DNA from: Bryobacterales bacterium
GTDB lineage: Bacteria > Acidobacteriota > Terriglobia > Bryobacterales > Bryobacteraceae
NCBI GenBank assembly: GCA_019261985.1
Contig: JAFAQY010000059.1
Location: forward strand, 1-36,830
Direction of reading: 5' to 3'
DNA length: 36,830 nt
The notes beneath the pieces were generated by a model. That model did not search any database. It saw only the letters and a list, made by a program, of their open reading frames with translations, and was not told the origin of the DNA. The translations under genes were made by a program, and so were the position numbers. Numbering within the stretch: position 1 is the first letter of the stretch; every line of letters begins with the position of its first letter. This document shows, in pieces, positions 4,601 through 36,463 of this stretch.

Positions 4601-4700
4601 GAGTCCGGGGTTTGCCGATTCCTACAAAGCGTATCTTCAGATTCGCGGCAAGGCCGGCGAAGATCCGCTGTTGAACGAAGTCCGCAGGCGGGCTCAGTAG
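1665..4700 (+). CDS. Membrane Ser/Thr protein kinase with N-terminal zinc ribbon and C-terminal TPR domain
   Basis: A Hanks-type (PknB-like) receptor kinase. The N-terminus has a zinc ribbon (C8, C11, C22, C25). The kinase domain spans about residues 84-350: glycine loop LGEGGMGAVY (91-100), lysine K114 in VALKVI, HRDLKPHN (206-213), DFG (226-228) and activation-segment end GTPAYMSPEQ. All catalytic residues are present. A single transmembrane helix lies at about 385-405. The external part opens with MMIADFNNHTGDPIFDGTL, resembling the FlgO/TolB-like domain of such kinases, and continues as TPR-like helical repeats to residue 1011, probably for protein binding. The GTG at 1665 is the longest start. 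ATG 1680 would begin directly with MQCPACH and is equally plausible; neither has a strong ribosome site. The kinase targets are unknown. Confidence 0.9.
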   Translation: MITPAMQCPACHTENTSGAARCRTCGATLGASLSAAASASTPIREESPTITEVPSSAWSRPFSTASRHLGSISQLSTGTLLGERYEIIALLGEGGMGAVYKARDREVGHLVALKVIRPELANQQVILNRFKQELILARQITHKNVIRIFDLGQAEGIKFITMEFVEGRDLHSLLKDGRVFTLNEKVRIIQQVCRALEAAHAEGVVHRDLKPHNIMVEESGRVVVMDFGIARSMEGTGGQTSTGALLGTPAYMSPEQAKGDKVDTRSDLFSLGIIFYELLTGCAPFESETMVGLLLKRIQERPIPPVGRDPAIPQGLNDVVLRLMAVDLAQRYQTAHEVLQDLQAWQGAPDTFRTVAGTLALPQQTQLSATMVAPQPPAVKKRTHWVWVGGATIVVLLGAAGFIFRDRFSSGPPAPHSPVTMMIADFNNHTGDPIFDGTLESTLKLALEGAGFISAYDRGQLKNLGVAPVDKLDEAAASKIALSQGMGAVVSGSLEPQGSGYALALKAVQAVTGATLATAQDTAANKDQVLFAITKAAASIRKALGDSTSDSNQRFAAETLTASSLESVHEYAQAMDELSNSKNEEALKGFSRAVDVDSNFGLAYAGMAIASENLDRHEDAEKYIREALQHIDRMTERERYRTRGMFYYITRDWQKCTDEYGARIAQFSSDVAAHNNLGVCYSQLRNMPKALEEMQRAADILPKKATYRFNHALYQAYSGNFQVAETEVQAALRMNPGYVKGYLTLAYSQLGQNQIEQAQTTYRTLENTGALGGSLAASGVADIAVYEGRYNDAVRILDKAAAADVSAGKMNLAADKFTALAYVQTLRGQKAAAVAAAQRAVDLSNSVKTRFLAARAFIEAGETAKAKMLQTSLANELIAEPQAYAKLIDGDIALKGGDARAAIQSFVQGNVLFDTWIGHFDLGRAYLEAAAYTDADSEFDRCMTKRRGEAMELFMDDVPTYGYLPPVYYYIGRVREGLKSPGFADSYKAYLQIRGKAGEDPLLNEVRRRAQ

Positions 4701-23502: not shown

Positions 23503-23539
23503 GAGGGCCGCTGCTTAAGGCAGTGTGCCCTCTTTTTTT
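23503..23539 (+). terminator. Rho-independent terminator after the secreted protein gene
   Basis: GAGGGC (23503-23508) pairs with GCCCTC (23527-23532), with an inner CTGC/GCAG stem and a TTAAG loop, followed by seven T residues (23533-23539). It starts 28 nt after the stop codon of the secreted protein gene and separates that gene from the biosynthetic operon downstream. Confidence 0.85.
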
Positions 23540-23958
23540 AATGATCTTGTTCCCCCGGGCATAGAACACCGCTCGCCGGCCCATCAGTGTCGCAGAGATT
23601 ACACGAACTGGCGGCCCAGTTCGAGGCAGTTGGATTTCAACAGGATCGCCGCTAGTCGCAGATTGCACGCTTGCCAGGGCGCGCATGCAGGAATAGCAAA
23701 ATTGACATCCCCGGCGAGATGCCAAACCTGGCGGGAATGCGCGAAATGCTTTAATTACTGTGGCGTGCACGCTTGTGCGTGTGGCATCCGCAACGGAACG
23801 TGAAATGCAACTCCGTCACCCGTTGGGCTAAGCAAGCCATCGATCCAGAGGAAGAGATCGGTGGCCGCTGGCTTTGCTTCGGGGCTGTTCACTGCAGCAC
23901 CTACCGGTCCCGCTGCCAAGTTTTGTGCGGAGTTGACGGCTTGGTCCGGGCGCCGATT
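23540..23958 (+). other. Intergenic region ahead of the biosynthetic operon
   Basis: About 420 nt without a convincing gene. An in-frame upward extension of the glycosyltransferase, starting from TTG 23773, runs through part of it but has a Cys/Trp-rich, non-family sequence and no ribosome site. The region holds a perfect inverted repeat at 23604-23623 and presumably the promoter of the operon. No convincing -35/-10 pair stands out. Confidence 0.5.
23604..23623. promoter_or_regulatory. Perfect 8-bp inverted repeat, possible operator
   Basis: CGAACTGG (23604-23611), loop CGGC, CCAGTTCG (23616-23623). It is followed by no T-run, so it is not an intrinsic terminator. It lies 336-355 nt before the likely glycosyltransferase start at 23959, in the only long gap ahead of the biosynthetic operon. 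It could be an operator or an RNA hairpin. Confidence 0.4.
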
Positions 23959-25200
23959 ATGCGTGAGGCCGATTTTATCGCGAGCCACACTTCTCGCGAT
24001 GGCGTGATCCGAATGCCGAGTTCCCACACCGGCAGAATCCGGGTGCTGACGATGATTACGAGTTTTCACATCGGCGGCACGGAAAGGCAAGTCACCAATG
24101 TTTCGTTAGGGCTCGACAGGACCCGCTTCGACCTTCACCTGGCGTGCATGCGCGACATCGGCGAACTGAAGCGGGAACTCGACGGTGTCTTGAATATTCC
24201 GCGTCCGGTTTTCGACATTGGAAGTCTGTACAGTTTTCGCACGCTTAAACAAGCCAAGCGGCTGGCGCGCTACATCCGCGACAACGGGATTCACGTTGTC
24301 CATACCTACGGTTTGTATCCCAACATCTTTGCAGTGCCGGTGGCGCGGCTCGCCGGCGCGCCCATCGTGATTGCGTCGATACGGGACTGCGGCGACATCT
24401 TGAAGCCATGGCAGCGCCGGGCCCAGAAAACGATCTGCGCTCTTGCCGATTGCGTTCTGGTGAACGCGGACGCGATCCGGGACACCCTGATCAAACAAGG
24501 GTATCGCGCGGAAAAGATCGCCGTCATTCGCAATGCGGTCACGCCCGCCAACCGCGCCGGTTCGCTGGCGGAACCTGGGATTCGCGCCGAAATGGGCTGG
24601 GATTCCAACGCTCCGGTAGTGATCGTACTTTCCAGGCTCAACCGGATGAAAGGCATTGAATACTTCCTGGAAGCTGCAAAGCTAGTGGGGCAAAGGATTG
24701 CCGCTGCGCGCTTCCTCGTTATCGGCGACGGAGCAATTAAACGCGAGCTGCAAGACCGTGCGTCCGCTCTAGGTCTCGCAGACAAAGTTATTTTCACTGG
24801 ATTTCGCACCGACGTAGGCCGGCTACTTCAGCAGGCCAACTTGTCGGTTCTCCCCTCGTTAAGCGAAGGACTCTCGAACGCTTTGCTGGAATCCATGGCG
24901 GCGGGCGTCCCCGTGATTGCCACCAGCGTCGGTGGAAACCCGGAGGTTGTGGAAGACGGCGTGTCCGGTCTATTGGTGCCGCCGAAGGATCCCACAAGTC
25001 TGGCGGATGCGATGTTAACGCTGCTTGAGAAACCCGCGCTGGCAGCCCGGTACGCAGCCGCGGGCTCGCAAAGGATTGACGAAATGTTCTCGGTAAAGCA
25101 GTCCGTCGCGAGAATTGAGAGCCTGTACCGGCAATTGGTGGATGGCCCTAATTACGTTCCGTTGGAGGCCGCGCCCGTCGAGAATTTTTTTGAAAGCTAA
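23959..25200 (+). CDS. GT4-family glycosyltransferase
   Basis: A GT-B fold retaining glycosyltransferase (GT4, Glyco_transf_4 plus Glycos_transf_1). Conserved parts are RVLTMITSFHIGGTERQV at the N-terminal domain, VVHTYGLYPNIFAVPVARLAG, the donor-binding core VIVLSRLNRMKGIEYFLEAA, FLVIGDGAIKRELQ, and the E-x7-E motif (EGLSNALLE) in LPSLSEGLSNALLESMAAGVPVIATSVGGNPEVV. It would transfer a nucleotide sugar to an unknown acceptor at the cytoplasmic face. ATG 23959 and ATG 24013 (MPSSHTGRIRVL) are both possible starts, and neither has a clear ribosome site; the family homology begins just after the second. Only 5 nt separate its stop from the next gene, so it appears to head the biosynthetic operon. 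Confidence 0.88.
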   Translation: MREADFIASHTSRDGVIRMPSSHTGRIRVLTMITSFHIGGTERQVTNVSLGLDRTRFDLHLACMRDIGELKRELDGVLNIPRPVFDIGSLYSFRTLKQAKRLARYIRDNGIHVVHTYGLYPNIFAVPVARLAGAPIVIASIRDCGDILKPWQRRAQKTICALADCVLVNADAIRDTLIKQGYRAEKIAVIRNAVTPANRAGSLAEPGIRAEMGWDSNAPVVIVLSRLNRMKGIEYFLEAAKLVGQRIAAARFLVIGDGAIKRELQDRASALGLADKVIFTGFRTDVGRLLQQANLSVLPSLSEGLSNALLESMAAGVPVIATSVGGNPEVVEDGVSGLLVPPKDPTSLADAMLTLLEKPALAARYAAAGSQRIDEMFSVKQSVARIESLYRQLVDGPNYVPLEAAPVENFFES

Positions 25201-25205
25201 ACCCT

Positions 25206-25889
25206 ATGAGTCCATCAACCACCGCAGTAGAAACTGAATACCATCCGCAAATCACTTCGATCAGGCAGCAGATCGCTAGCGTCTCCGGCGATCTGCTCGC
25301 GTCGCTTCCGGTGATCGAGCAACTATCTTCGGAGGCGCGGCGCGGGATTATCGCCCGCTATAGCGCCGTTCTCGAAGGCAACTTTATTTATTGGATGACT
25401 GGCGCGTATCTGGCCGCGAGGTCCCGAGAATCGCGCATCATCATCGAAGATAACCTGCTCACCGAGGTGCGCGATTCCCATCCGGGTATGCTGCGCAGAT
25501 TCGCTCTCGCGGCTTACTCCGTACCGAGCGATCTGGATGCGCTTGCCGTTTACCCGAGGCTTTCCGCCGTGCGCCTGTTCGTCGGGCGACTTTCTGCGGC
25601 GCCGCTGATGGCAATGATGGCTTTTTTTGAAGGCTTTATTCAAGGCTTCATGCCTTATCTGGCGGAGCTTGCAAAGCGGCAAGGATCCGAGGAAATGGAG
25701 TACACGGATGTCCACGGCGTTTGCGACATTGAACATTCCGAAGAACTGTTCCGCGCATTAGAGCTCGAAATGGAGCTTGCCGGGGACTCCCGCGAAGCCT
25801 CCGAATATTTATTCGAAGGTGTTTATCTCTTGCGGGACCTTATCAAGGCGATGATTTCGAGCCCAGGTATTTTCCGCAATGTCAATTAA
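25206..25889 (+). CDS. Heme-oxygenase-like diiron oxidase candidate (HDO / TenA-PqqC-like fold)
   Basis: A 227-residue all-helical protein resembling the iron-containing redox enzyme group of the heme-oxygenase-like superfamily (UndA, SznF and BesC are characterised relatives). Candidate metal ligands follow the usual order: E57 in AVLEGNF, E81/E87 and H92 in EDNLLTEVRDSHPGML, E142 in FFEGF, and H170-x3-D174-x2-H177 in VHGVCDIEH. The ENLxxE...HP pattern is characteristic of the group. Known members oxidise fatty acids, amino acids or amines. Here the substrate may be a carrier-bound acyl group or an amine made by the neighbours, which is inference. Its end overlaps the carrier protein gene by 11 nt. 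A non-redox TenA-like role cannot be excluded. Confidence 0.7.
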   Translation: MSPSTTAVETEYHPQITSIRQQIASVSGDLLASLPVIEQLSSEARRGIIARYSAVLEGNFIYWMTGAYLAARSRESRIIIEDNLLTEVRDSHPGMLRRFALAAYSVPSDLDALAVYPRLSAVRLFVGRLSAAPLMAMMAFFEGFIQGFMPYLAELAKRQGSEEMEYTDVHGVCDIEHSEELFRALELEMELAGDSREASEYLFEGVYLLRDLIKAMISSPGIFRNVN

Positions 25890-26133
25890 AGAGACCATCC
25901 TCTCCGAGATCGAGCGGATCCGGCTAGCCGGCCGCGCGAAAGACCTGCCGGGGTTGACGGATGATTTGGTTTTGCTTGATTCGGGACTTGACTCGCTAGG
26001 CATAGCTGTTCTGGTTACACGTCTTGAAGACAGCTTGGGAATCGATCCGTTCGACGACTCCGAATTCGCGTCTCCGCCGGTGACGCTCGGAGACTTCGTA
26101 CGGCTTTATGAAAATGCGGCGCAGTCCGTTTAA
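25879..26133 (+). CDS. Acyl carrier protein
   Basis: An 84-residue acidic carrier protein of the PP-binding family. The phosphopantetheine attachment site is LLDSGLDSLG, with S39 in the D38-S39-L40 core. Helix-2 and helix-3 residues follow as IAVLVTRLEDSLGIDPFDDSEFASPPVTLGDFVRLY. It differs from a housekeeping fatty-acid ACP (usually DSLDTVE), which fits a dedicated carrier. It overlaps both neighbours, and the next gene encodes an AMP-forming ligase that may load it. No phosphopantetheinyl transferase is in the window, so activation would rely on one elsewhere. Confidence 0.93.
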   Translation: MSIKETILSEIERIRLAGRAKDLPGLTDDLVLLDSGLDSLGIAVLVTRLEDSLGIDPFDDSEFASPPVTLGDFVRLYENAAQSV

Positions 26134-27475
26134 TTCGATCCGGGAGCATTTGATTAACCACGCCAATCCCGGGCGTTTTCTCTGGGGCACGGCGGCGCAG
26201 GTCCACCTCTCCGACGTGCTCACCGGAACATACTCGGACGGCCGCGCTCCGGATTTGTGCGGCAAATCGGTGTTGCTCGCCACGCAAGATCAAGCGGCGG
26301 CTGCATTGGCGCTGATCGAGCTCGACGGCATTGCGAGGCGAATTATCGTATGCCCGCCCGATCTGGCGGCCGCGCATTTTCCGGCGGTGATCGCGAGAGG
26401 AGAAGCGGATGCGATTGTGTCGGATTATGATGTTCCGTTCGCGCACGATTTACTGCGCGTTTCCTCCGTAGCGGGGATAGCCGGCGGGGCAGCCGGGCAA
26501 GATCGCCCGCTCCAAAGGACAGAGTGGGTGCTGCTCACTTCGGGCACAACCGGCGCTCCGAAGATGATCGTGCACACACTAGCAAGTCTTACTGCGCCGA
26601 TTGATGCTAACCAAGAACCAGGACGCGTTTGGGGCACGTTCTATGACATCCGCCGCTATGGCGGTTTGCAGATTTTTTTGCGCGCCCTGCTGGGTGGCGG
26701 CTCGCTCGTGCTTTCAAGCGCGGGCGAGCCGGTTTCGGACCATCTCGGGCGGCTGGCGGCGCGAGGCGTCACACATCTCTCCGGCACTCCATCGCAGTGG
26801 CGGCGCGTTTTGATGAGCCCCGCGGCGCGCCTGATTTCGCCGGCGTACATCCGACTCTCCGGCGAAATCGCGGACCAATCGATTTTGGACGCGCTGCGAT
26901 CTTTCTATCCTGACTCCCGAATCGGCCATGCGTTCGCCTCGACGGAAGCCGGGGTTGCATTTGAGGTGAACGACGGTCTTACCGGCTTCCCCGCGAGCTT
27001 CATAGGATCTCGAGGTGAAGTCGAGATCGGGATTCGCCATGGATCTCTAATAATTCGCTCCGGCCGCGCCGCATCGCACTACCTGGACGCGGAAAGCGGA
27101 CCGCTGAAGGACCAAGAGGGGTTCGTAGATACCGGCGATATCGTTGATGTGCGCGGCGAGCGGTGCTACTTTCTCGGCCGCCGCAACGGAGTCATCAATG
27201 TCGGCGGGTTGAAAGTGTATCCGGAAGAAGTGGAGGCGGTGATCAACCGCCATCCGGCCGTACGCATGTGCATGGTAGTGGGCAGAAAGAATACACTAAT
27301 GGGCGCGCTTGTGGCCGCGGACGTCGTGGTTACCGATGCCGCGGTGGGCGTTCCGAACGAAATCCTGGCCATTTGCCGCCAGAGTCTGCCTGTCCACAAA
27401 GTGCCCGCAACCATTCGTTGCGTCACTGCGCTCGAAATCGCCTCCGCCGGAAAAATGGTTCGCCATTATGCGTAA
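26108..27475 (+). CDS. AMP-forming acyl/aryl ligase (ANL superfamily), probably loading the carrier protein
   Basis: A 455-residue adenylate-forming enzyme, which activates a carboxylic acid with ATP and passes it to a thiol. Core motifs: P-loop LLTSGTTGAPKMIVHT, A5-like FASTEAG, A7 DTGDIV, hinge FLGRRNGVINVGGLKVYPEEVEAVI, and the catalytic lysine in ASAGKMVRH near the end. The N-terminal part is short for the superfamily (usual total 500-550). ATG 26108 overlaps the carrier gene by 26 nt; ATG 26114 is an alternative. The position right after the ACP suggests an acyl-ACP ligase rather than an acyl-CoA ligase, but this is inference. Its substrate is unknown. Confidence 0.85.
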   Translation: MKMRRSPFNSIREHLINHANPGRFLWGTAAQVHLSDVLTGTYSDGRAPDLCGKSVLLATQDQAAAALALIELDGIARRIIVCPPDLAAAHFPAVIARGEADAIVSDYDVPFAHDLLRVSSVAGIAGGAAGQDRPLQRTEWVLLTSGTTGAPKMIVHTLASLTAPIDANQEPGRVWGTFYDIRRYGGLQIFLRALLGGGSLVLSSAGEPVSDHLGRLAARGVTHLSGTPSQWRRVLMSPAARLISPAYIRLSGEIADQSILDALRSFYPDSRIGHAFASTEAGVAFEVNDGLTGFPASFIGSRGEVEIGIRHGSLIIRSGRAASHYLDAESGPLKDQEGFVDTGDIVDVRGERCYFLGRRNGVINVGGLKVYPEEVEAVINRHPAVRMCMVVGRKNTLMGALVAADVVVTDAAVGVPNEILAICRQSLPVHKVPATIRCVTALEIASAGKMVRHYA

Positions 27476-28193
27476 TGTGATCGTGACGGGCGGAACGCGG
27501 GGCCTCGGATTGGCCGTCGCCGGCCATGTCGCGGCCCAAGGTTATCGCGCGATCGCGGTGGCCAGGAGCAAAAGCGCGGAGTTCTCGTCGCTAGAGGAAC
27601 GATTGGGCCGCAACTCGCTCGAGTTCGTTCCGTTCGATCTAGCCGAAGTAGAGGAACTGCCGAATTTGGCCAAGCAACTCACCGCGGATTTCGGTCCTAT
27701 GTATGGACTGGTAAACAATGCAGGCATCGGAACGGATGGAGCGCTCGCCATGATGCCCGTCTCGCGCATTGAACGCGTTGTGCGCTTGAACACGCTCGCC
27801 CCCATTATTTTGAGCAAATACGTGGTCCGCCGAATGATGGCCGACGGCGGCGGCAGGATCGTAAACGTCGCATCGATTACCGCCTTTACAGGATACTCCG
27901 GCCTTTCGGTTTACGCCGCAACCAAATCGTCGATGATCGGTTTCACACGGTCGCTCGCGCGTGAAGTGGGACGTCTGGGCATTAATGTGAACGCCGTCGC
28001 TCCGGGTTTTATGGAGACGGAAATGACGCGACAGATGGACCCGAAGCGACGCGAGCAAATTGCCGGGAGGAGCGCACTGCGGCGCTTCGTTTGCGTGGAG
28101 GATGTTGCAAAAGCGGTGGGCTATTTGCTTGGGGAGAATGCGAGGAACATCACCGGCACGGTGCTCACGGTTGATGCAGGGGCAACGGCATGA
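27468..28193 (+). CDS. SDR-family reductase, FabG-like
   Basis: A 241-residue short-chain dehydrogenase/reductase. It has the nucleotide-binding TGGTRGLG motif at the N-terminus, VNNAG, and the catalytic Ser plus YAATK (Y-x3-K) in VNVASITAFTGYSGLSVYAATKSS. The C-terminal APGFMETEMTRQM and ITGTVLTVDAG are typical of 3-oxoacyl-ACP reductase-like members. It would use NAD(P)H to reduce a keto group or oxidise an alcohol, possibly on the carrier protein. The start ATG at 27468 overlaps the ligase stop by 8 nt. An in-frame upstream extension exists but would not match the family. Confidence 0.93.
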   Translation: MRNVIVTGGTRGLGLAVAGHVAAQGYRAIAVARSKSAEFSSLEERLGRNSLEFVPFDLAEVEELPNLAKQLTADFGPMYGLVNNAGIGTDGALAMMPVSRIERVVRLNTLAPIILSKYVVRRMMADGGGRIVNVASITAFTGYSGLSVYAATKSSMIGFTRSLAREVGRLGINVNAVAPGFMETEMTRQMDPKRREQIAGRSALRRFVCVEDVAKAVGYLLGENARNITGTVLTVDAGATA

Positions 28194-29899
28194 TCGCATC
28201 TGAAGCAGCAATACGCGCAAAGCGAGCCTCGCCCTCCAAAACGTGGCGGCGAGCGCTCGAGCTCACCGCGACAATCGCCGGAAATCCCACGCGCTTGCTT
28301 TCAAGCGCGATTCAAGATTGGGCCGAGACGTCGCCGGATGCTCCGGCGCTGCTTTCCGGCCGCGAGTGCATGAGCTATCGCCAGCTGGCGGAGAGATCGA
28401 ATCGGTACACGCGCTGGGCAATAAAGCAACGGCTCGGCAAATCGGATGTCGTCGCTTTACTAATGCCGAACGGGCCGGAATATGTGGCGATGTGGCTCGG
28501 CCTTACGCGCGCCGGCTGCACGGTCGCGCTGCTGAATACGAACCTTACCGGATCGTCGCTCGAACATTGTATCGATATCGTGGCGCCAAAGCTTGTGTTT
28601 ACGGCCCCGGTGGAGAACATTGACGCGCTCCCGGGCAAGCGCGTGGGGTTGGACGAATGTGGTCCTGTCACGATTGAAGATCGCGCGTTATACATCTACA
28701 CGTCGGGAACCACCGTGCTCCCAAAGGCAGCTAATATCAGCCACTCCCGCATAATGCAGTGGAGCCTTTGGTTCGCGGGAATGCTCGGGGCCGCACCGGA
28801 AGACCGCCTTTATAACTGCCTTCCCATGTATCACAGTGTCGGCGGCGTGGCGGCCTTAGGCGCGATGCTCTGCTCGGGTGGTTCCGTTGTCATACGCGAA
28901 AGGTTTTCCGCGAGCAACTTCTGGAGCGATATCGTCCAATGGGACTGCACAATTTTCCAATACATCGGCGAATTGTGCCGGTATTTGATGCATGCCCCGC
29001 TAACCGCAATCGAGAAAGAACACCGGATCAGGGTTTGTTGCGGCAACGGATTAAGGCCCGATATTTGGGAGGCCTTTAAAACGCGATTTTCCATACCGCA
29101 AATTCTCGAATTCTATGCCTCAACCGAGGGCAATGTTTCCTTGTTCAATGTCGAAGGGAAGCCCGGCTCCATCGGCCGCATCCCTCCCTTCCTGGCGCAC
29201 CGTTTCCAAACGGCGCTAGTCCGCTTAGATCATCAGACCGGCGAACCCATCCGTGATGAGCGTGGATTCTGCATCCGCTGCGCGCCGGATGAGCCGGGCG
29301 AAGCGATCGGGCGCATTTTCGAAGACCGCTCAAATATAGGCAGCCGCTTTGAAGGCTACACCAACCAGGCGGACTCAGAGAAAACAATCCTTCGCGGCGT
29401 CTTCGAGCCCGCGGATGCCTGGTTCCGCACCGGCGATTTGATGCGCCGGGATGAAAATGGCTACTTCTACTTCGTCGACCGCATCGGAGATACTTTCCGA
29501 TGGAAAGGCGAGAATGTCTCTACGACCGAAGTAGAGCAAGTTTGTTGTGAGTTTCCGGGCGTCTTGCAAGCCAACGTTTCCGGTGTATCGGTGCCCGGGA
29601 CGGATGGCCGCGCCGGGATGGCCACTCTGGTCACAACCACCCAGTTCAGCCTGGATGATTTCCGAAATCACCTGTGGAAGCATCTGCCGCGTTACGCGCA
29701 GCCGTTATTTTTGCGTCTTCGAGACGACCTGGAAACGACCGCTACTTTCAAGCCGCTCAAGAGCGCATTGGCTCGCGATGGTTACGACCCATCCGCCACA
29801 GCCGACCCAATCTTCTTCAACGATTGTGAAGAGGGCGCGTTCCTTCGGGTTAATGAAGAATTATTCGGTCAAATTAAGAGCGGAAAGCTGAGATTATGA
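28190..29899 (+). CDS. FATP-like acyl-CoA synthetase (AMP-forming)
   Basis: A 569-residue enzyme of the fatty-acid-transport-protein/very-long-chain acyl-CoA synthetase branch of the ANL superfamily. Motifs: P-loop YIYTSGTTVLPKAANISHSR (about 168-187), where Val replaces the usual Gly after TSGTT; the FATP-type EFYASTEGN; FRTGDLM; FVDRIGDTFRWKGENVSTTEVE; and ATFKPLK near the C-terminus with the catalytic lysine region. It would activate a carboxylic acid, probably a fatty acid, to the CoA or carrier thioester. It overlaps both neighbours by ATGA. Being the second AMP-forming ligase in the operon, it may supply a second acid building block or act on a different carrier. Confidence 0.9.
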   Translation: MIASEAAIRAKRASPSKTWRRALELTATIAGNPTRLLSSAIQDWAETSPDAPALLSGRECMSYRQLAERSNRYTRWAIKQRLGKSDVVALLMPNGPEYVAMWLGLTRAGCTVALLNTNLTGSSLEHCIDIVAPKLVFTAPVENIDALPGKRVGLDECGPVTIEDRALYIYTSGTTVLPKAANISHSRIMQWSLWFAGMLGAAPEDRLYNCLPMYHSVGGVAALGAMLCSGGSVVIRERFSASNFWSDIVQWDCTIFQYIGELCRYLMHAPLTAIEKEHRIRVCCGNGLRPDIWEAFKTRFSIPQILEFYASTEGNVSLFNVEGKPGSIGRIPPFLAHRFQTALVRLDHQTGEPIRDERGFCIRCAPDEPGEAIGRIFEDRSNIGSRFEGYTNQADSEKTILRGVFEPADAWFRTGDLMRRDENGYFYFVDRIGDTFRWKGENVSTTEVEQVCCEFPGVLQANVSGVSVPGTDGRAGMATLVTTTQFSLDDFRNHLWKHLPRYAQPLFLRLRDDLETTATFKPLKSALARDGYDPSATADPIFFNDCEEGAFLRVNEELFGQIKSGKLRL

Positions 29900-30738
29900 T
29901 CGCGCCAGAGTGGGATATACAGCACCTTTGTATCGGATTAGTTAACAATATGCCGGATGCGGTGAAACCGGCGGCGGAGCGGCAATTTCGCGATTTGTTG
30001 GCTGCCGCGGCTCAAAACGTTTGCGTGAGCGTGTCGGTTTACTCATTAGAGACAATTGACGCGCTGTGGGGCGCTCAACTCGACGGACTTATCGTTACCG
30101 GACGCGAACCGCGCACTCGAACGCTCACGTCGGAGCCTTACTGGCCGACACTAGCTGCGGTCATCGAGTGGGCCGAGCGCAACACTTATTCAACAATCTG
30201 GAGTTGTCTGGCCGCGCATGCCGCGGTGCTTCATATCGATGGCATTGAACGGCGGGCGCTCAACCAGAAGCTGTTCGGAGTTTTCGACTGCGCGAAGGTC
30301 GCGGAACATCCTTTGATGTCCGCCACTCCATCGCGATGGTGCGTGCCCCATTCCCGGTGGAACGATCTCGCCGCGCACAAACTGGAGGCCTGCTGCTATC
30401 GTATTTTGACCCGATCCCCGCAGGCCGGCGCCGATATATTCATAAAACATCGGCGGCGCAGCTTATTTGTTTTCTGTCAGGGCCATCCGGAATACGATTC
30501 GGAGACTCTGTGGCTTGAGTATCGAAGGGATCTTCGACGGTTCCTGCAAGGGCTGGTCCCCCGGCCATCGCTGCCGCACGGAAACACTTATGGCGCGGCG
30601 TGGCGTCCAGGGGCAATTCGACTTTATCGCAACTGGCTCGATTATCTCCACTCGCGAAAGAGCTTACAGCACAATGCGCGGCTGCGGCTACGGCACAACC
30701 AAGCCGGATATGCGCAAGCCAGTCAGGTGGGCCGATGA
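29896..30738 (+). CDS. MetA-like homoserine O-acyltransferase
   Basis: A 280-residue protein of the MetA (homoserine O-succinyl/acetyltransferase, glutamine-amidotransferase-like fold) family. It begins with GLVNNMPDAVKPAAERQFRD, like MetA GLMNLMP. DGLIVTGREPR and YWPTLAAVIEWAE follow. The nucleophilic cysteine is C104 in IWSCLAAHAA, and GHPEY contributes H197 and E199, matching the catalytic Cys, His and Glu of MetA. PHSRWNDL is also conserved. It would acylate the hydroxyl of homoserine, creating a leaving group for gamma-substitution. The MetY-like gene three places downstream would use that product. It could serve methionine synthesis, but its place inside an acyl-carrier operon suggests a dedicated pool. 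The acyl donor is unknown. Confidence 0.82.
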   Translation: MIAPEWDIQHLCIGLVNNMPDAVKPAAERQFRDLLAAAAQNVCVSVSVYSLETIDALWGAQLDGLIVTGREPRTRTLTSEPYWPTLAAVIEWAERNTYSTIWSCLAAHAAVLHIDGIERRALNQKLFGVFDCAKVAEHPLMSATPSRWCVPHSRWNDLAAHKLEACCYRILTRSPQAGADIFIKHRRRSLFVFCQGHPEYDSETLWLEYRRDLRRFLQGLVPRPSLPHGNTYGAAWRPGAIRLYRNWLDYLHSRKSLQHNARLRLRHNQAGYAQASQVGR

Positions 30739-31838
30739 TGATAGCAGCTCCGGCCCGGCCGCATCGCGAAGTCAAGACCGATTTCGTTATCGAGCCGCTC
30801 TTCCCTTGGGCTTTGGCGGATGTGGCCGAATTCATTGACAAGCAGCGGCGCGCCGGCCTGGGCGCGGAAGATGCACCCGCCATCGAACGCCGCTTGAAGT
30901 GGCTGCTGCTGGAGAACCCGCTCGCGGGCGATCGACATCCAATGGGTTATTCTGTCCGTGATCTTTGGGGCAATATCAAGGGCGTCAATCTCTGTTTTCC
31001 GTCCGCGTTTCTTGCCGGTGAGCGCCGGTTTTTCGGTCTGTGCTCGGGGAGTTTCTTCGTCGAGCCCTCGGCGCGGCCGATGGGTTTTTATCTTTTCAAA
31101 AAATATCTGGGCGCCCCCGATTACAAAGTCTTCTTCGCAACCACCTGCAATGCGAATTCGGTGCCGCTGTGGCGAAGCCTGGGCGGGCGGTTAATCCCCA
31201 ATTCTGAAACCGAGTACATTGTTCCTCTGCGTTTAGATCTAATGTTGTCCGCAAAATTCAAGTCTGCGTTTGCGCAGTTCGCCGCGCGTTGCATTCATCG
31301 GGTTCAGCATTTTCTTACTCGCCGCACGCCGGCGTTCACGATCGAGAAATGTGAAGACTGGGACAAGCTTGCCGCGCTTTTCCGCGCGCACCGGCCGCCA
31401 CAATGGATTTCCTACGAGCGGTCCAGGGAGTTTCTTGAATGGCGCTACGGATCGAACTCCCCCGCGCACCCTTGCAGCCTTTATGTATTCCGCGACCGGC
31501 AAGGCAACGAGGGATGGTTCGCTTTGGGCACTCTAAAACGGGGCGCCTTTAAAGGGGCAATGCTTTTGGATGCCGTCTGGCCGCGCGACAAGGTGAGCTT
31601 CAAAGACGTGTTCTCAGAAATCACAGCAGTGGCAGCCGACTCCGCGGCGGCGCTTTTCTTCCGCCGGCAACCGGGATTTAATCGCAGTGAATATTGCCGT
31701 TTTGCAATCTCGCGCGAATTGGATGCGCGAACATTTGTGATATCCGCGAAGAACTCGCCGCAAATTGACCTGAATACGTTCGATTACGACGATAACGACT
31801 ACATAGCATGGATGCCTCGCCCCAGCTCCGCCGAGTAA
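30735..31838 (+). CDS. GNAT-family acyltransferase
   Basis: A 367-residue protein of the GNAT-type N-acyltransferase fold: DLWGNIKGVNLCFPSAFLAGERRFFGLCSGSFFVEPSARPMGFYLFKKYL fits the first GNAT core and VFFATTCNANSVPLWRSLGGRL the acyl-CoA/acyl-carrier site. A second related half contains FLEWRYG and VFRDRQGNEGWFALGTLKRG, as in double-GNAT proteins such as FemX-like enzymes. The ATG at 30735 (MMIAAPARP) overlaps the MetA-like stop; a longer reading frame upstream lies on the MetA-like gene. In this operon it is the most likely N-acylating enzyme, joining an activated acyl group to an amine, which is inference. It overlaps the decarboxylase gene by 31 nt. Confidence 0.75.
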   Translation: MMIAAPARPHREVKTDFVIEPLFPWALADVAEFIDKQRRAGLGAEDAPAIERRLKWLLLENPLAGDRHPMGYSVRDLWGNIKGVNLCFPSAFLAGERRFFGLCSGSFFVEPSARPMGFYLFKKYLGAPDYKVFFATTCNANSVPLWRSLGGRLIPNSETEYIVPLRLDLMLSAKFKSAFAQFAARCIHRVQHFLTRRTPAFTIEKCEDWDKLAALFRAHRPPQWISYERSREFLEWRYGSNSPAHPCSLYVFRDRQGNEGWFALGTLKRGAFKGAMLLDAVWPRDKVSFKDVFSEITAVAADSAAALFFRRQPGFNRSEYCRFAISRELDARTFVISAKNSPQIDLNTFDYDDNDYIAWMPRPSSAE

Positions 31839-33196
31839 CGCCCGCGTTTGGCGAATTGCGCGAGGCCGCCGCGCAACTCGAGCGCGACATCGCCGCGGGC
31901 CCCATCGTGCCGCATGTAGCCTCGCAAGAAATACGCGATTATCTTTCCTCGCGGTACGACTTCACCCAGCCTCGCCCGCTTGATAATGTTATCGCCGACG
32001 TCGAGGAGATGCTCCGAAAGTGGCAAGTGCATGTAACTCATCCGCGCTATTTCGGCCTGTTCAATCCGAGCGTGACCATTGCCTCCGTTGTCGCGGACGC
32101 GCTAGTCGCGATGTACAATCCACAGCTCGCGACGTTGCGTACATCGCCGGCGGCGAACGAGATCGAGCGGCACACTCTGGCGTGGCTCGCCGGCAAATTC
32201 GGCCTGCCCGGCCACACAGCGGCGAATTTCACCAGCGGCGGCGCGGAAGCGAACTCGTCGGCTGTACTCGTCGCTCTTGCCCATGCGTTCCCGGAATATC
32301 GGGATCGGGGGTTGGTCGGGCTGAAGAAATCGCCGGCCATTTATCTTACGGGCGGCGCTCATCACGGATTTCTGAAAACAGCGCGTATGGCGGGACTCGG
32401 CAGCCGCGGGCTTCGCACCGTCGCGGTGGATGGCGACCTGAGAATGAATGTCGCCGATTTAGAGCGAAAAATATCGGAAGACAGCAAGAACGGATTCGTT
32501 CCATTTCTGGTGATTGCCACCGCGGGCACAACGGCGGCAGGCGTTATCGATCCGCTGCCTGAAGTTGCGCGCTTCTGCCGTTCGCAAAATTTGTGGTTCC
32601 ACGTGGATGCCGCGTGGGGCGGCGCGGCGGTTATATCGCCGCTCCTGAAGCGCCATTTGGCGGGAATCTCGGAAGCCGATTCGATCACCTGCGACGCGCA
32701 CAAATGGTTTTCCGTGCCGATGGGCGCCGGGATGTTCTTCTGCCGTCATCCCGAGGCGATTTCGCAAGCCTTTGAATCGGATATTTCCTTCATGCCGGAA
32801 AAGACGGCTGGCGCCTTGGATCCGTACTCTTCCACCATGCAGTGGTCGCGGCGATTTATCGGCCTGAAGTTCTTCCTAGGCCTCGCCGAACGCGGCGAGT
32901 CCGGATACGCGGAGTTGATCGAGCATCAGGCTCGGATGGGCGACGTTCTGCGCCAAGCGCTGTTGCGCGCCGGCTGGCGCATCGTGAACAATACTCCCCT
33001 GCCGCTTGTGTGCTTCACGCGTTACGGACTCGATACATCCAAATTCTTAAAGACCCTCTACGATCGCCAGATCGCATGGATGTCGGAAGTCAGCCTCGAC
33101 GGTGGCCTGCCGGTGCTGCGGGCGAGCATCACCAGCTTCCGCACCACGGAGCAGGATATCGAATGGGTGGTCCGCGAAATGAGCAAGATTCTGTGA
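31808..33196 (+). CDS. PLP-dependent amino-acid decarboxylase (group II, DDC-like)
   Basis: A 462-residue fold-type I PLP enzyme of the group II decarboxylases (aromatic amino acid/DABA/glutamate type). It shows HPRYFGLFNPS, FTSGGAEANSSAVLVAL, the ring-stacking histidine H185 in GGAHHGFLK, D267 in WFHVDAAWGGA and the PLP lysine K299 in DAHKWFSVPMG. It removes the alpha-carboxylate of an amino acid to give a primary amine. The natural substrate cannot be told from sequence; a product of the MetY-like enzyme encoded next to it is an obvious candidate. It is complete and overlaps the GNAT gene by 31 nt and the next gene by 4 nt. Confidence 0.88.
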   Translation: MDASPQLRRVTPAFGELREAAAQLERDIAAGPIVPHVASQEIRDYLSSRYDFTQPRPLDNVIADVEEMLRKWQVHVTHPRYFGLFNPSVTIASVVADALVAMYNPQLATLRTSPAANEIERHTLAWLAGKFGLPGHTAANFTSGGAEANSSAVLVALAHAFPEYRDRGLVGLKKSPAIYLTGGAHHGFLKTARMAGLGSRGLRTVAVDGDLRMNVADLERKISEDSKNGFVPFLVIATAGTTAAGVIDPLPEVARFCRSQNLWFHVDAAWGGAAVISPLLKRHLAGISEADSITCDAHKWFSVPMGAGMFFCRHPEAISQAFESDISFMPEKTAGALDPYSSTMQWSRRFIGLKFFLGLAERGESGYAELIEHQARMGDVLRQALLRAGWRIVNNTPLPLVCFTRYGLDTSKFLKTLYDRQIAWMSEVSLDGGLPVLRASITSFRTTEQDIEWVVREMSKIL

Positions 33197-34479
33197 GAGC
33201 GGAAACGATTGCAATACATGGCGGCTACGAAGACGATCCAGCGACAAACGCCGTGGCCGTGCCCATATACCAAACCGCGGCATATGCATTCGACAGCGCC
33301 GATCACGCGGCCGCGCTTTTCAATTTAGAAGCGGGCGGGTATCGCTACACCCGCATTAACAACCCGACCACGGCCGTGTTGGAGCGGCGCGTTGCCGCGC
33401 TCGAAGGCGGACTCGAAGCCTTGGCGGTGAGCTCAGGGCAGGCAGCGGTGAACTATGCCGTTACCAATCTAACCAGCCCAGGCGCGAATATCGTATCCGT
33501 TCCGCAGTTGTACGGCACAACCCACACGCTGTTTGCCCATATCCTGCCAAATCAGGGGGTTTGCACGCGCTTCGCGGAGTCGGATCAGCCCGGCGCTATT
33601 GAGGAGCTGATCGACAAAAACACGCGTGCGGTGTTTTGCGAAACCGTCGGCAACCCGGCGGGCAATATTTGCGATATCGAGGCGCTCGCGCGCGTCGCCC
33701 ATAGACAAGGCGTTCCGCTGATTGTCGATAATACGGTCGCGTCGCCCATCCTGCTTCGGCCGATCGAGTACGGCGCGGATATTGTTGTTCATTCGCTCAC
33801 GAAGTTCATGGGCGGCCATGGGACGGCGCTGGGCGGCGTGATCGTGGATAGCGGCAAATTTCCATGGCGGGAGAATGCCCGCCGTTTTCCAATGTTCAGC
33901 CGGCCTGACCACTCCTATCACGATCTCGTTTACAACGACCGCTTCGGGGATGCCGCGTACATCGGCCGCTGCCGGTGCGTGTGCGCGCGGACCATTGGCG
34001 CCGTTCTTTCTCCCTTCAATGCGTTTCTGCTGCTGCAAGGAATCGAAACGGTGGCATTGCGCATCGAGCGTCATATTGAAAATGGCCGCCGCGTCGCGGA
34101 ATTCCTTCGCGGCCATCCGAGAGTTGAGTGGATCAACTATGCGGGTTTCGACGACAGCCCTTATCACGCGCTTGCTCAAAAATATCTCCGGGGACGTGGG
34201 TGCTCATTGATGACATTCGGAGTCCTTGGCGGTTATGAAGCCGCCAAGACGTTCTACGACGCTCTGCGTCTGGTAAAGCGGGTCGTCAACATCGGCGACG
34301 CCAAATCCCTGGCCTGTCATCCGGCTTCGACAACTCACCGGCAGATGTCGGCAGAAGAACAACGCAAGGCCGGCGTAACGCCGGAAACCCTCCGCTTGAG
34401 CGTGGGCATCGAGCATATCGACGACATTCTCGCCGATCTCGATCAAGCGCTGGCCGCTGGCAGCGCAAAGGTGGCTTAA
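33193..34479 (+). CDS. MetY-like PLP gamma-substitution enzyme (O-acylhomoserine sulfhydrylase family)
   Basis: A 428-residue enzyme of the Cys/Met-metabolism PLP family. The GTG at 33193, overlapping the decarboxylase stop (GTGA), gives RAETIAIHGGYEDDPATNAVAVPIYQT, the normal MetY beginning and length; a longer frame upstream lies on the decarboxylase gene. Residues include YRYTRINNPTTAVLERRVAALEGG, VDNTVASP and the PLP lysine K204 in HSLTKFMGGHG. The end has VVNIGDAKSLACHPASTTH and LRLSVGIEHIDDI. It would replace the acyloxy group of an O-acylhomoserine with a nucleophile: sulfide in ordinary MetY, carbon or nitrogen nucleophiles in relatives such as LolC, CndF or Fub7. Which applies here is unknown. 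Confidence 0.85.
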   Translation: MRAETIAIHGGYEDDPATNAVAVPIYQTAAYAFDSADHAAALFNLEAGGYRYTRINNPTTAVLERRVAALEGGLEALAVSSGQAAVNYAVTNLTSPGANIVSVPQLYGTTHTLFAHILPNQGVCTRFAESDQPGAIEELIDKNTRAVFCETVGNPAGNICDIEALARVAHRQGVPLIVDNTVASPILLRPIEYGADIVVHSLTKFMGGHGTALGGVIVDSGKFPWRENARRFPMFSRPDHSYHDLVYNDRFGDAAYIGRCRCVCARTIGAVLSPFNAFLLLQGIETVALRIERHIENGRRVAEFLRGHPRVEWINYAGFDDSPYHALAQKYLRGRGCSLMTFGVLGGYEAAKTFYDALRLVKRVVNIGDAKSLACHPASTTHRQMSAEEQRKAGVTPETLRLSVGIEHIDDILADLDQALAAGSAKVA

Positions 34480-34561: not shown

Positions 34562-36463
34562 ATGTCAAAAGCAAAGAAGACCCCCGTTGGCCGGCGCGGA
34601 TTTTTGAAGGGCGCGGCTGTGGGTGCGGCGGCAATGGCTGCTCGACCGAACATCGGACGCGCGCAAGATTCGCCCCAGCCCGGCGGCCGCGGGGCCGCGG
34701 CGCCTACGCAAACCGCGCTTGCCCGAGAAGCGGGAAATGCCCGTCCAACGGCAGCCGCGCTGCGCGTGATCGACCGGCCTGGGTCGGACTTCATGGTCGA
34801 AGTACTGAAATCGCTGAATATTGAATATCTCGCCGCGAACCCCGGCTCTACGTTCGAGTCCCTGCACGAATCGCTGATCAACTACGGCAACAATCAGATG
34901 CCGGAGTTTCTGACCGCTTGCCACGAGGAGTCCGCCGTCGCGATGGCGCACGGCTATTTCAAAATCGAAGGCAAGCCGATGATGGCGCTCATTCATGGCG
35001 ACATCGGCCTGCAGCACGCCGGCATGGCGATTTACAACGCCTACTGCGACCGTGTGCCGGTCTTTATGATTGTGGGCAACCACGCCGATTCGGCCGAGCG
35101 CGGACAGGGCGTGCAGTCCATCCACAGCGCGCAGGACCTGGGAGCGCTGGTTCGCGACTACACCAAGTGGGACGATGAGCCGTACTCGCTTCAAGCCTTT
35201 GCCGATAACTCGGTTCGCGCGTATAAAATCGCCATGACCCCGCCGATGGGGCCGACGCTCATCGTCGCGAATAACGAAATTCAAGCCCATCCGCAAACGG
35301 AGCGGAATTTGCGCATCCCGAAATTGGTGCTGACGTCTCCACCCGCCGGCGATTACGGCGCCGTGAAGGAAGCCGCCAAGATGCTCGTCAACGCGGAACG
35401 GCCCATCATCATCGCCGAAAGAGCGGTCCGCACGCAGCGCGGCGTTGATCTGCTTATCGAACTGGCGGAAACCCTGCAAGCCCCGGTGAACAGCCAGGAG
35501 CGCATGAATTTCCCGAATCGCCATCCGCTGGCCGGCACAGGTGGGCCGGGATACAGCCCCGATGTGGCGCTGTGTCTGGAGTTGAACGATCTTCAAAACG
35601 AGACCCGCGCCGCGCGGGCGCGCAACGGCAAGATCATCAGCATTTCTTCGCTCGCGCTCTCGCATAAGAGCAATATTCAGGATTTCGGCCACTACGCGGA
35701 TGTGGACCTTGACATCGGCGCGGACGCCGAGGCCACGCTTCCGGTGCTTATTGAGGAGTGCAAGAAACTGATCACGCCCGATCGGAAAGCTGCGATTCAG
35801 GCGCGCGGCATGAAAGTCGCCGAAGCCAACCGGCAGGCCCGCGTCCAGGGTATCGAGAGCGCCCGGCTTGGCTGGGACGCGAGTCCGATCGCCTTAAGCC
35901 GCATCGCCGCGGAACTTTGGCCTCTGGTGCAAAAGGAAGATTGGTCCTACGTGTCACCGATGGCTTTCGCCGGCGGCTGGGCCAACCGGCTTTGGGACAT
36001 GACCAAGACCTATCAGTACATCGGCGGCCAGGGCGCGGGTGGAATGGGATATGGCGCTCCTGCTTCGGTGGGAGCGGCTCTAGCCAATCGCAAGTACGGC
36101 CGGCTGTCCATCAACATTCAAACCGATGGCGATTTCAACTACGCTCCTGGCGTCTTCTGGACGGCGGCGCATCATCGCATCCCTCTGCTGACCATCATGC
36201 ACAACAACCGCGGCTATCACCAGGAGGTCATGTTTATCGAGCAGATGGCCAGCCTGCATAACCGCGGCGCGGAGCGGGCGCATATCGGCACGAAGCTGTG
36301 GGACCCCGACATTAATTACGCTCAGATCGCAAAAGGTTACGGTCTTTATGCGGAAGGCCCCATCACCGATCCCAACGACTTAGCTCCGGCATTGAAGCGC
36401 GGCATCGAGCGCGTGAAGAAGGGCGAGCCGGTGTTGCTGGATGTAGTGACGCAGCCGCGGTGA
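34562..36463 (+). CDS. Tat-exported thiamine-diphosphate-dependent enzyme (acetolactate synthase-like)
   Basis: A 633-residue ThDP enzyme of the acetolactate synthase/benzoylformate decarboxylase superfamily. The N-terminus, KKTPVGRRGFLKGAAVGAAA, is a twin-arginine signal, followed by a Gly/Ala-rich linker; catalytic homology starts at about residue 75. The PYR domain has E122 in CHEESAVAMAHGY, corresponding to the ThDP-activating glutamate. The PP domain has the metal/diphosphate motif DGDFNYAPG (522-530) ending in HNN (547-549). Tat export of a folded, cofactor-loaded enzyme is unusual for this superfamily. The start has a strong AGGAGAA site 5 nt upstream. It probably decarboxylates or ligates a 2-keto acid in the periplasm; the substrate is unknown. 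No FAD-binding requirement can be read from the sequence. Confidence 0.88.
   Translation: MSKAKKTPVGRRGFLKGAAVGAAAMAARPNIGRAQDSPQPGGRGAAAPTQTALAREAGNARPTAAALRVIDRPGSDFMVEVLKSLNIEYLAANPGSTFESLHESLINYGNNQMPEFLTACHEESAVAMAHGYFKIEGKPMMALIHGDIGLQHAGMAIYNAYCDRVPVFMIVGNHADSAERGQGVQSIHSAQDLGALVRDYTKWDDEPYSLQAFADNSVRAYKIAMTPPMGPTLIVANNEIQAHPQTERNLRIPKLVLTSPPAGDYGAVKEAAKMLVNAERPIIIAERAVRTQRGVDLLIELAETLQAPVNSQERMNFPNRHPLAGTGGPGYSPDVALCLELNDLQNETRAARARNGKIISISSLALSHKSNIQDFGHYADVDLDIGADAEATLPVLIEECKKLITPDRKAAIQARGMKVAEANRQARVQGIESARLGWDASPIALSRIAAELWPLVQKEDWSYVSPMAFAGGWANRLWDMTKTYQYIGGQGAGGMGYGAPASVGAALANRKYGRLSINIQTDGDFNYAPGVFWTAAHHRIPLLTIMHNNRGYHQEVMFIEQMASLHNRGAERAHIGTKLWDPDINYAQIAKGYGLYAEGPITDPNDLAPALKRGIERVKKGEPVLLDVVTQPR

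What the first reader, a model, noticed from the sequence alone, without database searches (positions are those of the whole stretch)
23959..34479. Ten-gene, tightly overlapping operon that looks like an undescribed biosynthetic cluster
Seen: GT4, HDO-like oxidase, ACP, ANL ligase, SDR, FATP-like synthetase, MetA-like, GNAT, PLP decarboxylase and MetY-like genes run on one strand with overlaps of 4-31 nt and one 5-nt gap, bounded by a terminator upstream and a new promoter downstream. Known: a dedicated ACP with its own ligases plus tailoring enzymes is the mark of natural-product or special-lipid pathways. Inference: a small acyl-amine or glycolipid-type metabolite is made. There is no PKS or NRPS module, so cluster finders may miss it.
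Basis: partly seen in the sequence, partly recalled or inferred. Interest (0 to 1): 0.9.

Follow-up and report, generated by a model that had tools for sequence, protein, structure and literature searches.

The report
Unnamed conserved soil-bacteria biosynthetic gene cluster
A run of ten tightly packed genes contains an eight-gene set that recurs together in soil bacteria and probably builds an unusual small building block, perhaps for decorating the cell's sugar coat; its product is not yet known.

Summary
In detail: ten same-strand ORFs, 4-31 nt overlaps, one 5-nt gap, behind a strong terminator. The claimed downstream promoter is not supported. Eight genes form a conserved core: HDO-fold oxidase, ACP, ANL ligase, SDR, FATP-like synthetase, MetA-like, PLP decarboxylase, MetY. 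Of 22 public loci with at least 9.5 kb held downstream of the oxidase, 17 have all eight and 21 at least seven. Oxidase and ligase occur in the same 7 of 121 relatives and the same 2 of 297 phylum genomes, own genome included. GT4-like and GNAT-like genes are accessory (each in 5 of 48 loci). The oxidase keeps the 3H/3C dimetal ligands and models as an HDO. Flanks elsewhere are rich in polysaccharide genes, some exosortase-type. Best reading: the core makes an ACP-bound oxidised acyl unit and a homoserine-derived unit destined for a surface glycan. Substrates and product are inferred. Nine searches of an open-access library listed no paper describing this set. A new variant of a known kind: a biosynthetic cluster without PKS/NRPS.

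The parts
23503..23540 (+). intrinsic terminator behind the upstream gene (20533-23475), upstream boundary of the operon
   Evidence: -24 kcal/mol, z -4.8, 0 of 200 shuffles as good; run of seven T read
23959..25200 (+). GT4 glycosyltransferase, nearest NCBIfam TIGR03088 (XrtA/PEP-CTERM system glycosyltransferase, 173 bits, under its 409 cut-off); accessory
   Evidence: relatives at >=200 bits in 5 of 48 public loci
25206..25889 (+). HDO-fold dimetal oxidase; core
   Evidence: (invariant E57, H92, E142, H170, D174, H177)
25879..26133 (+). stand-alone acyl carrier protein with GLDSL motif; core
   Evidence: (PF00550 23.1 vs 20.8 bits)
26108..27475 (+). stand-alone ANL adenylating ligase, best NCBIfam profile MenE (under cut-off); core
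27468..28193 (+). SDR reductase, FabG-like (under equivalog cut-offs); core
28190..29899 (+). FATP/FadD6-type acyl-CoA synthetase; core; lacks a block that holds a median of 32 residues in 28 aligned relatives
   Evidence: (NF006134 703 vs 625 bits)
29896..30738 (+). MetA-like homoserine O-acyltransferase; core; the only PF04204 match in the genome; 280 aa against 318-389 aa in 21 uncut relatives
30735..31838 (+). unassigned protein, perhaps a tandem GNAT-type acyltransferase; accessory
   Evidence: relatives in 5 of 48 loci
31808..33196 (+). group II PLP-dependent amino acid decarboxylase; core
33193..34479 (+). MetY-type O-acetylhomoserine sulfhydrylase, second copy in the genome; core
   Evidence: (TIGR01326 604 vs 495 bits)

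Best explanation
SHOWN: eight genes (HDO oxidase, ACP, ANL, SDR, FATP-like, MetA-like, PLP decarboxylase, MetY) are kept together as a unit in rare, scattered soil bacteria. INFERRED MECHANISM: the ANL ligase adenylates a carboxylic acid and loads it on the dedicated ACP; the dimetal HDO and the SDR oxidise/reduce the carrier-bound (or free) acid; MetA acylates the gamma-hydroxyl of homoserine and MetY displaces that ester with sulfide or another nucleophile to give a gamma-substituted amino acid; the PLP decarboxylase turns an amino acid into an amine; the FATP-like synthetase supplies an acyl-CoA, either as acyl donor for MetA or for the last acylation. The finished group is passed to a sugar of a surface glycan by a changeable acyltransferase (the GNAT-like protein here; hexapeptide or Acyl_transf_3 acyltransferases, or hydrolase-like proteins, in relatives), next to glycosyltransferases. 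So the core makes a building block and the accessory genes fix where it goes.
For: Core conservation: of 22 loci with >=9.5 kb downstream, 17 have all eight and 21 at least seven; 37 of 38 loci with >=2.5 kb downstream hold the ANL. Co-occurrence, own genome included: HDO (E<=8.3e-72) and ANL (E<=1.9e-136) in the same 7 of 121 relatives, MetA (E<=4.7e-62) in 6 of those 7; HDO and ANL in the same 2 of 297 phylum genomes. Distances of core proteins correlate for 27 of 28 pairs (r 0.38-0.90, at most 1 of 499 permutations as high). Catalytic residues kept: HDO 3H/3C set in 43 of 43 aligned rows (ligand set as described in PMC13108848, passages); MetA Cys104, His197, Glu199 in 22 of 22 (roles recalled). 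A further full-length MetY lies elsewhere in the genome, so this copy is extra. Glycan link: among 100 sampled flank proteins GT group 1 in 6, GT2 in 4, hexapeptide transferases in 6, Bac_transf, Polysacc_synt and Poly_export in 2 each; none of these is among the 25 families listed for 100 control proteins; XrtA amidotransferase TIGR03108 in 2 flank proteins; XrtA-type chain-length determinant, ATPase and kinase beside the cluster in L024, FemAB-like in L026; acyltransferase or hydrolase genes in or beside the cluster in other hosts.
Against: No substrate or product is known. In the window itself the only polysaccharide-type neighbour is the GT4 gene; the two exosortases of the genome lie on other contigs. 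Only 11 of 30 loci with >=5 kb upstream carry one of six EPS-type gene groups (groups seen in fewer than 3 loci not counted; one group, c12, named by eye). The XrtA-type matches in L024 and L026 are all below their curated cut-offs. L033/L034 have no recognisable ACP or SDR, L021 lacks FATP and has only a fragment of the decarboxylase, L023 has no MetA in the held DNA. L017 has an HDO with no core gene on its 10.6-kb contig. ACP and PLP decarboxylase distances do not correlate (r 0.13). The HDO review speaks of no carrier-bound HDO substrate ('carrier protein' occurs only in a reference title), so that step has no precedent there. The window's MetA lacks 17- and 35-residue blocks that all 21 aligned relatives have, so it may be altered.
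Confidence: 0.42

Rival explanations
1. The cluster makes a free, diffusible specialised metabolite (for example an unusual gamma-substituted amino acid, its decarboxylated amine, or an N-acyl amine), and the polysaccharide genes are mere neighbours.
For: MetY relatives are used in such pathways: the sulfhydrylase FUB7 is among its 9 PDB relatives at E<=1e-100 (its role in fungal fusaric acid synthesis is recalled). Characterised HDOs have mostly been linked to fatty- or amino-acid substrates (PMC13108848). Patchy distribution suits specialised metabolism. 19 of 30 loci with >=5 kb upstream lack an EPS marker in my count.
Against: No transporter or resistance gene recurs: beyond the eight core groups no gene group is found in more than 6 loci. 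Flanks are enriched in glycan genes.
Confidence: 0.37
2. It makes a special membrane lipid (amino- or glycolipid), with the FATP-like enzyme, SDR and ACP handling fatty acyl chains.
For: The FATP-like enzyme is over the cut-off of a long-chain acyl-CoA synthetase family; the SDR is FabG-like; UndA, a fatty-acid HDO, is among the fold matches.
Against: None of the ten proteins hits a glycerolipid- or serine-palmitoyl-type acyltransferase family; the MenE-like ANL and the MetA/MetY pair are not explained.
Confidence: 0.13
3. It is a sulfur-assimilation/methionine operon.
For: MetA-like and MetY genes in one operon; this MetA is the only PF04204 match in the genome.
Against: A second full-length MetY and a further Cys/Met PLP enzyme exist; the set is absent from most of the relatives searched; HDO, ACP, ANL, SDR, FATP and decarboxylase have no place in methionine synthesis (general knowledge).
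Confidence: 0.03
4. Chance juxtaposition of unrelated enzymes in one operon.
For: None found.
Against: All eight genes recur together in 19 of 48 loci, cut ones included, and co-occur in whole genomes.
Confidence: 0.01

Closest known systems
Heme oxygenase-like dimetal oxidases (HDOs: UndA, HrmI, BesC, CADD, PolF, MboA)
   Same: Fold and 3H/3C ligand set (PMC13108848, passages)
   Different: 13-17% identity to the solved HDOs listed; I saw no HDO with ACP, ANL, MetA and MetY partners in the parts of the review that I read, and 'carrier protein' occurs there only in a reference title
Exosortase A (XrtA/PEP-CTERM) system exopolysaccharide loci with ligase TIGR03098 and hydrolases TIGR03100/TIGR03101
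   Same: ACP plus ligase plus PLP decarboxylase; hydrolase-like pair between HDO and ACP in L022, L035, L052, L055 and one such gene in L036; EPS genes nearby
   Different: ANL scores far under TIGR03098 (66 vs 592 bits); the decarboxylase is PF00282; HDO, MetA, MetY and FATP are additional. That the usual cassette also has an ACP and a decarboxylase is recalled; Haft 2006 does not hold those terms
MetA/MetY methionine branch (O-acylhomoserine sulfhydrylation)
   Same: Both enzyme families, MetA triad kept
   Different: Extra copy of MetY, patchy occurrence, other partners
FUB7/fusaric acid and rhizobitoxine type pathways that use O-acylhomoserine with MetY-like enzymes (recalled)
   Same: MetY-family enzyme in a biosynthetic cluster; FUB7 is a solved relative
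   Different: No PKS domain here; HDO, ACP, ANL instead; rhizobitoxine genes recalled, not compared

Membership tests
HDO superfamily | seven-helix heme-oxygenase-like fold | tested here: met
   model pLDDT 91.5; first solved matches HrmI, CADD, UndA, probability 1.00, TM 0.62-0.69; E-values weak, only 1 match at E<=0.001; TenA and PqqC, of the same fold, also match
HDO superfamily | 3H/3C ligand set E..H..E..HxxxDxxH | tested here: met
   E57, H92, E142, H170, D174, H177 invariant in 43 of 43 aligned rows; E87 also invariant, possibly a fourth carboxylate. Which position is which ligand is assigned by spacing recalled for SznF/UndA
HDO superfamily | O2-dependent dimetal oxidation | not testable with these tools
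   needs protein
XrtA/PEP-CTERM ACP-ligase cassette | ligase over TIGR03098 cut-off | tested here: not met
   65.8 bits (ANL) and 110.9 bits (FATP) vs 592
XrtA/PEP-CTERM ACP-ligase cassette | hydrolases TIGR03100/TIGR03101 over cut-off | tested here: not met
   no such hit among the ten window proteins; the L055 pair scores 62 and 72 bits vs 168 and 203
XrtA/PEP-CTERM ACP-ligase cassette | exosortase or EPS locus adjacent | tested here: inconclusive
   not in the window (exosortases on other contigs); XrtA-type genes beside the cluster in some relatives
NRPS/PKS cluster | condensation or ketosynthase domain | tested here: not met
   no such Pfam hit in the ten proteins
Methionine biosynthesis operon | kept in relatives as a primary-metabolism operon | tested here: not met
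   HDO and ANL in 7 of 121 relatives and 2 of 297 phylum genomes, MetA in 6 of 121 (strong matches)
O-acetylhomoserine sulfhydrylase (MetY) | TIGR01326 over cut-off | tested here: met
   604 vs 495 bits; below the cut-offs of the narrower equivalog models listed
Homoserine O-acyltransferase (MetA) | PF04204 over cut-off and Cys/His/Glu triad | tested here: met
   201 vs 27 bits; triad (recalled from MetA) in 22 of 22 rows; below NF003776, NF047918 and TIGR01001 cut-offs, so subfamily and acyl donor are open
GNAT | GNAT profile hit or confident fold | tested here: inconclusive
   no profile hit; model pLDDT 52 with a strand/helix order that would suit two GNAT units (my reading)

The most novel reading that the evidence does not exclude
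A previously undescribed, horizontally shared pathway in which a dimetal HDO works on an ACP-bound acyl group and a private MetA/MetY pair makes a homoserine-derived partner, the joint product being an unknown chemical decoration of soil-bacterial exosortase-type exopolysaccharide; the same core is fitted with different acyltransferases in different hosts.
Probability: 0.33. Interest if true: 0.78.

Novelty: new variant of a known kind. Interest (0 to 1): 0.6.

Why it matters
It names an eight-gene set, found also in named strains (complete in Terracidiphilus gabretensis S55; six genes up to the contig end in Acidipila rosea DSM 103428; all eight matched in Granulicella sp. L46, where the ligase lies in two pieces), whose product is unknown and which has neither PKS nor NRPS domains. 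It joins an HDO, a free ACP/ligase pair and a private MetA/MetY pair, a combination I know from no described pathway. If the HDO works on a carrier-bound group, that would extend HDO chemistry as reviewed in PMC13108848; if the glycan link is right, it gives a chemical handle on how exosortase-type polysaccharides are decorated.

Tried and rejected
Considered and rejected: methionine operon; chance operon; inclusion of the downstream TPP enzyme and the upstream 980-aa gene (no tblastn hit in the loci held then); downstream promoter. Led nowhere: GNAT-like fold (too poor to search); pdb_via comparison (library absent); nine literature searches, of which I saw only the listings, several cut short (for example 20 of 409 papers), and no listed paper described the set; Haft 2006 (PMC1569441) was only searched for six terms, none of which occurs; of PMC13185094 I saw outline and abstract; of PMC13108848 the first of six parts and passages. 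ANL substrate pocket: alignment looked at, no substrate assigned. Plasmid search with MetA found 45 records, all under 60% identity. HDO phmmer against PDB gave one meaningless match.

Rows dropped before counts: alignment A1 (43 rows) leaves out L013 (stop at residue 220 of 230), L018, L033, L054, L056 (cut or without start) and L053 (frame runs on), and the genome-search loci L002-L007; A2 leaves out L021 (in-frame stop). Alignments keep only uncut rows without stops. Presence counts rest on tblastn scores over fixed thresholds, whether or not the frame is intact: L013 HDO, the two-piece ANL of L047 and the 83-aa decarboxylase piece of L021 count as present. Flank scan: 100 of 221 flank proteins and 100 of 196 control proteins, controls from two genomes only, G068 and G063.


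Full report
Observation. The ten ORFs exist as described on the + strand between 23959 and 34479, with one 5-nt gap and overlaps of 11, 26, 8, 4, 4, 4, 31 and 4 nt. Pfam supports GT4, ACP, ANL, SDR, FATP-type synthetase, MetA, PLP decarboxylase and MetY over its cut-offs. The oxidase misses the PF14518 cut-off by a little (26.5 vs 28.9 bits). The 'GNAT' has no family hit. Upstream there is a strong terminator directly behind the preceding gene. A new promoter downstream is not supported by the scan.

Conservation. A search of named genomes with the oxidase gave 48 loci, by record title from Acidobacteriota, Rokubacteriota, one Pirellulales and one short cut contig labelled Formivibrio. tblastn of the window's genes showed the same neighbours again and again. 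Counting with fixed score thresholds: 22 loci have at least 9.5 kb of DNA downstream of the oxidase; 17 have all eight core genes and 21 have seven or more. The five that fall short: L021 (no FATP), L023, L026 and L045 (no MetA; in L026 and L045 the held DNA ends at or just behind MetY), L034 (no ACP, no SDR). Per gene, of 22: HDO 22, ANL 22, PLP decarboxylase 22 (in L021 only an 83-aa piece), MetY 22, ACP 21, SDR 21, FATP 21, MetA 19. Over all 48 loci, cut ones included, 19 have all eight. The order HDO-ACP-ANL-SDR-FATP is nearly fixed; MetA, PLP decarboxylase and MetY change places, FATP is inverted in L013, L026 and L045, and HDO has moved in L031 and L044. Relatives of the window's GNAT-like and GT4 genes are each found in 5 of 48 loci (GT4 at 200 bits or more), so these two are accessory.

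Co-occurrence in whole genomes (own genome included in all counts). Among 121 relatives the oxidase is strongly present in 7 (an eighth, G063, has a weak partial match, E 1.5e-4), the ANL at E<=1.9e-136 in exactly these 7 (weaker ANL matches in G050, E 7.7e-64, and G020, E 9.6e-52), and MetA at E<=4.7e-62 in 6 of the 7 (missing in G070, 84% complete; one weak match with a stop in G001). In an even sample of 297 genomes of the phylum both markers are in the same 2 genomes, G000 and G304. So the set is rare and patchy, yet its members come together. Pairwise protein distances correlate for 27 of 28 core pairs (r 0.38-0.90; ACP against PLP decarboxylase is the exception, r 0.13); common descent of the hosts would also give such correlation. 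In trees of ANL and HDO the Rokubacteriota rows are not one clade (at least 5 and 3 label changes forced by well-supported branches), which suggests transfer between phyla, but some of these metagenome bins may be mislabelled: L033 and L034 are nearly identical though titled as different phyla.

Enzymes. Oxidase: E57, H92, E142, H170, D174 and H177 are invariant in 43 rows and fit the three-histidine, three-carboxylate set described in the HDO review PMC13108848 (first part of the text and passages seen); E87 is also invariant and could be a fourth carboxylate. The model is confident and its first solved matches are HrmI, CADD and UndA, with TenA/PqqC proteins of the same fold below and BesC at rank 28; HDO matches are at 13-17% identity, so the reaction cannot be read from them. 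ACP: GLDSL serine kept in the rows shown. MetA-like: Cys104, His197, Glu199 and Arg210/Arg211 kept in 22 of 22 rows (their roles are recalled from MetA). The window copy alone lacks 17- and 35-residue blocks that 21 aligned relatives have, and its FATP lacks a block that holds a median of 32 residues in relatives. MetY: close to O-acetylhomoserine sulfhydrylases, with the fungal FUB7 among its PDB relatives. The genome has another MetY on contig C67 that scores higher with TIGR01326 (665 vs 604 bits), and one further full-length Cys/Met PLP enzyme on C81, so the cluster copy is an addition. PLP decarboxylase: group II, related to diaminobutyrate, glutamate, cysteine-sulfinate and aromatic decarboxylases; substrate open. 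ANL: MenE-like by profile, no close solved relative.

Setting. In the window the only glycan gene is the GT4, whose best NCBIfam model is the XrtA/PEP-CTERM glycosyltransferase TIGR03088, under its cut-off. In other genomes the flanks are rich in glycan genes: of 100 sampled flank proteins, 6 match GT group 1 families, 4 GT2, 6 hexapeptide transferases, 2 each Bac_transf, Polysacc_synt and Poly_export; in 100 control proteins from two relatives none of these families is among the 25 listed (the list is cut within families of 2 members, so up to 2 matches of each could be hidden). Two flank proteins match the XrtA amidotransferase TIGR03108, best E 4e-186. L024 has XrtA-type chain-length determinant, ATPase and tyrosine kinase genes beside the cluster, and L026 a FemAB-like and a sugar-aminotransferase-like gene, all below their cut-offs. 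In or beside the cluster sit acyltransferases of other kinds in other hosts: hexapeptide enzymes between HDO and ACP in L023 and L025, and a group of compact ones (c1, by protein clustering; one copy, from L037, scanned) in L013, L015, L026, L031, L037 and L038; an Acyl_transf_3 group (c11; the L045 copy scanned) in L013, L015 and L045; a pair resembling the exosortase-associated hydrolases in L022, L035, L052 and L055, with one member in L036. L026 carries a second carrier-like small protein and a TIGR03098-like ligase (234 bits, under the 592 cut-off) behind the oxidase. Against this, only 11 of 30 loci with at least 5 kb upstream carry one of six EPS-type gene groups.

Explanation. The data show a biosynthetic module. 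What it makes is inferred: ANL and ACP imply a carrier-bound acyl group; HDO and SDR change its oxidation state; MetA and MetY imply a gamma-substituted homoserine-derived amino acid; the decarboxylase an amine; the FATP-like enzyme an acyl-CoA. Changeable acyltransferases and glycan neighbours make attachment to a surface polysaccharide the likeliest fate (0.42), ahead of a free metabolite (0.37) and a lipid (0.13).

Known or new. Nine literature searches listed no paper describing this set; that is a statement about this open-access library, those terms and the listed top papers only. Membership in the HDO superfamily is met on fold and ligands; membership in the XrtA ACP-ligase cassette is not met on the profiles tested; no NRPS/PKS domain was found in the ten proteins, and it does not behave as a methionine operon. 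I rate it a new variant of a known kind: a biosynthetic cluster of unknown product.

Noticed in passing
window 29896-30738 and 28190-29899: The window's MetA alone lacks 17 and 35 residues that 21 aligned relatives have, and its FATP lacks a block of about 32 residues, all in frame; function could be altered.
   Followed up: partly
window 34562-36463: TPP-dependent enzyme with an RRGFLKG Tat-like N-terminus follows the operon after an 82-nt gap; no tblastn hit in the loci held.
   Followed up: partly
window 20533-23475: 980-aa protein with long threonine-glycine repeats upstream of the operon (sequence printed); nature not tested.
   Followed up: no
window 17700-20348: Multidomain LigD-type DNA ligase (Prim-Pol, phosphoesterase, ligase domains).
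   Followed up: no
window 1665-4700: Serine/threonine kinase with TPR repeats.
   Followed up: no
L010, L015, L025, L032, L043, L046, at the 3' end of the cluster: A class-III aminotransferase-like gene group (c2) lies beside the cluster in six loci (PF00202 found in 2 of the sampled flank proteins).
   Followed up: partly
L033 and L034: Nearly identical clusters in bins titled Acidobacteria and Rokubacteriota lack a recognisable ACP and SDR: a reduced version or a mislabelled bin.
   Followed up: partly
L022, L035, L036, L052, L055 between HDO and ACP: The alpha/beta hydrolase c4 lacks serine at its GxSxG position in 5 of 5 copies; its partner c8 has cysteine there in the three copies where the motif was found.
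   Followed up: partly
L026:11342-13063: Second ACP-like gene and a TIGR03098-like ligase behind the HDO.
   Followed up: partly
L017 (same assembly as L014 by record title): HDO copy with no core gene on its 10.6-kb contig.
   Followed up: no
L021: Cluster looks degraded: no FATP and only an 83-aa piece of the decarboxylase.
   Followed up: no
L047:10882-12325: The ANL gene of Granulicella sp. L46 matches in two pieces with a break in frame.
   Followed up: no
G000:C37 and C82: Two exosortase genes elsewhere in the window's genome.
   Followed up: no
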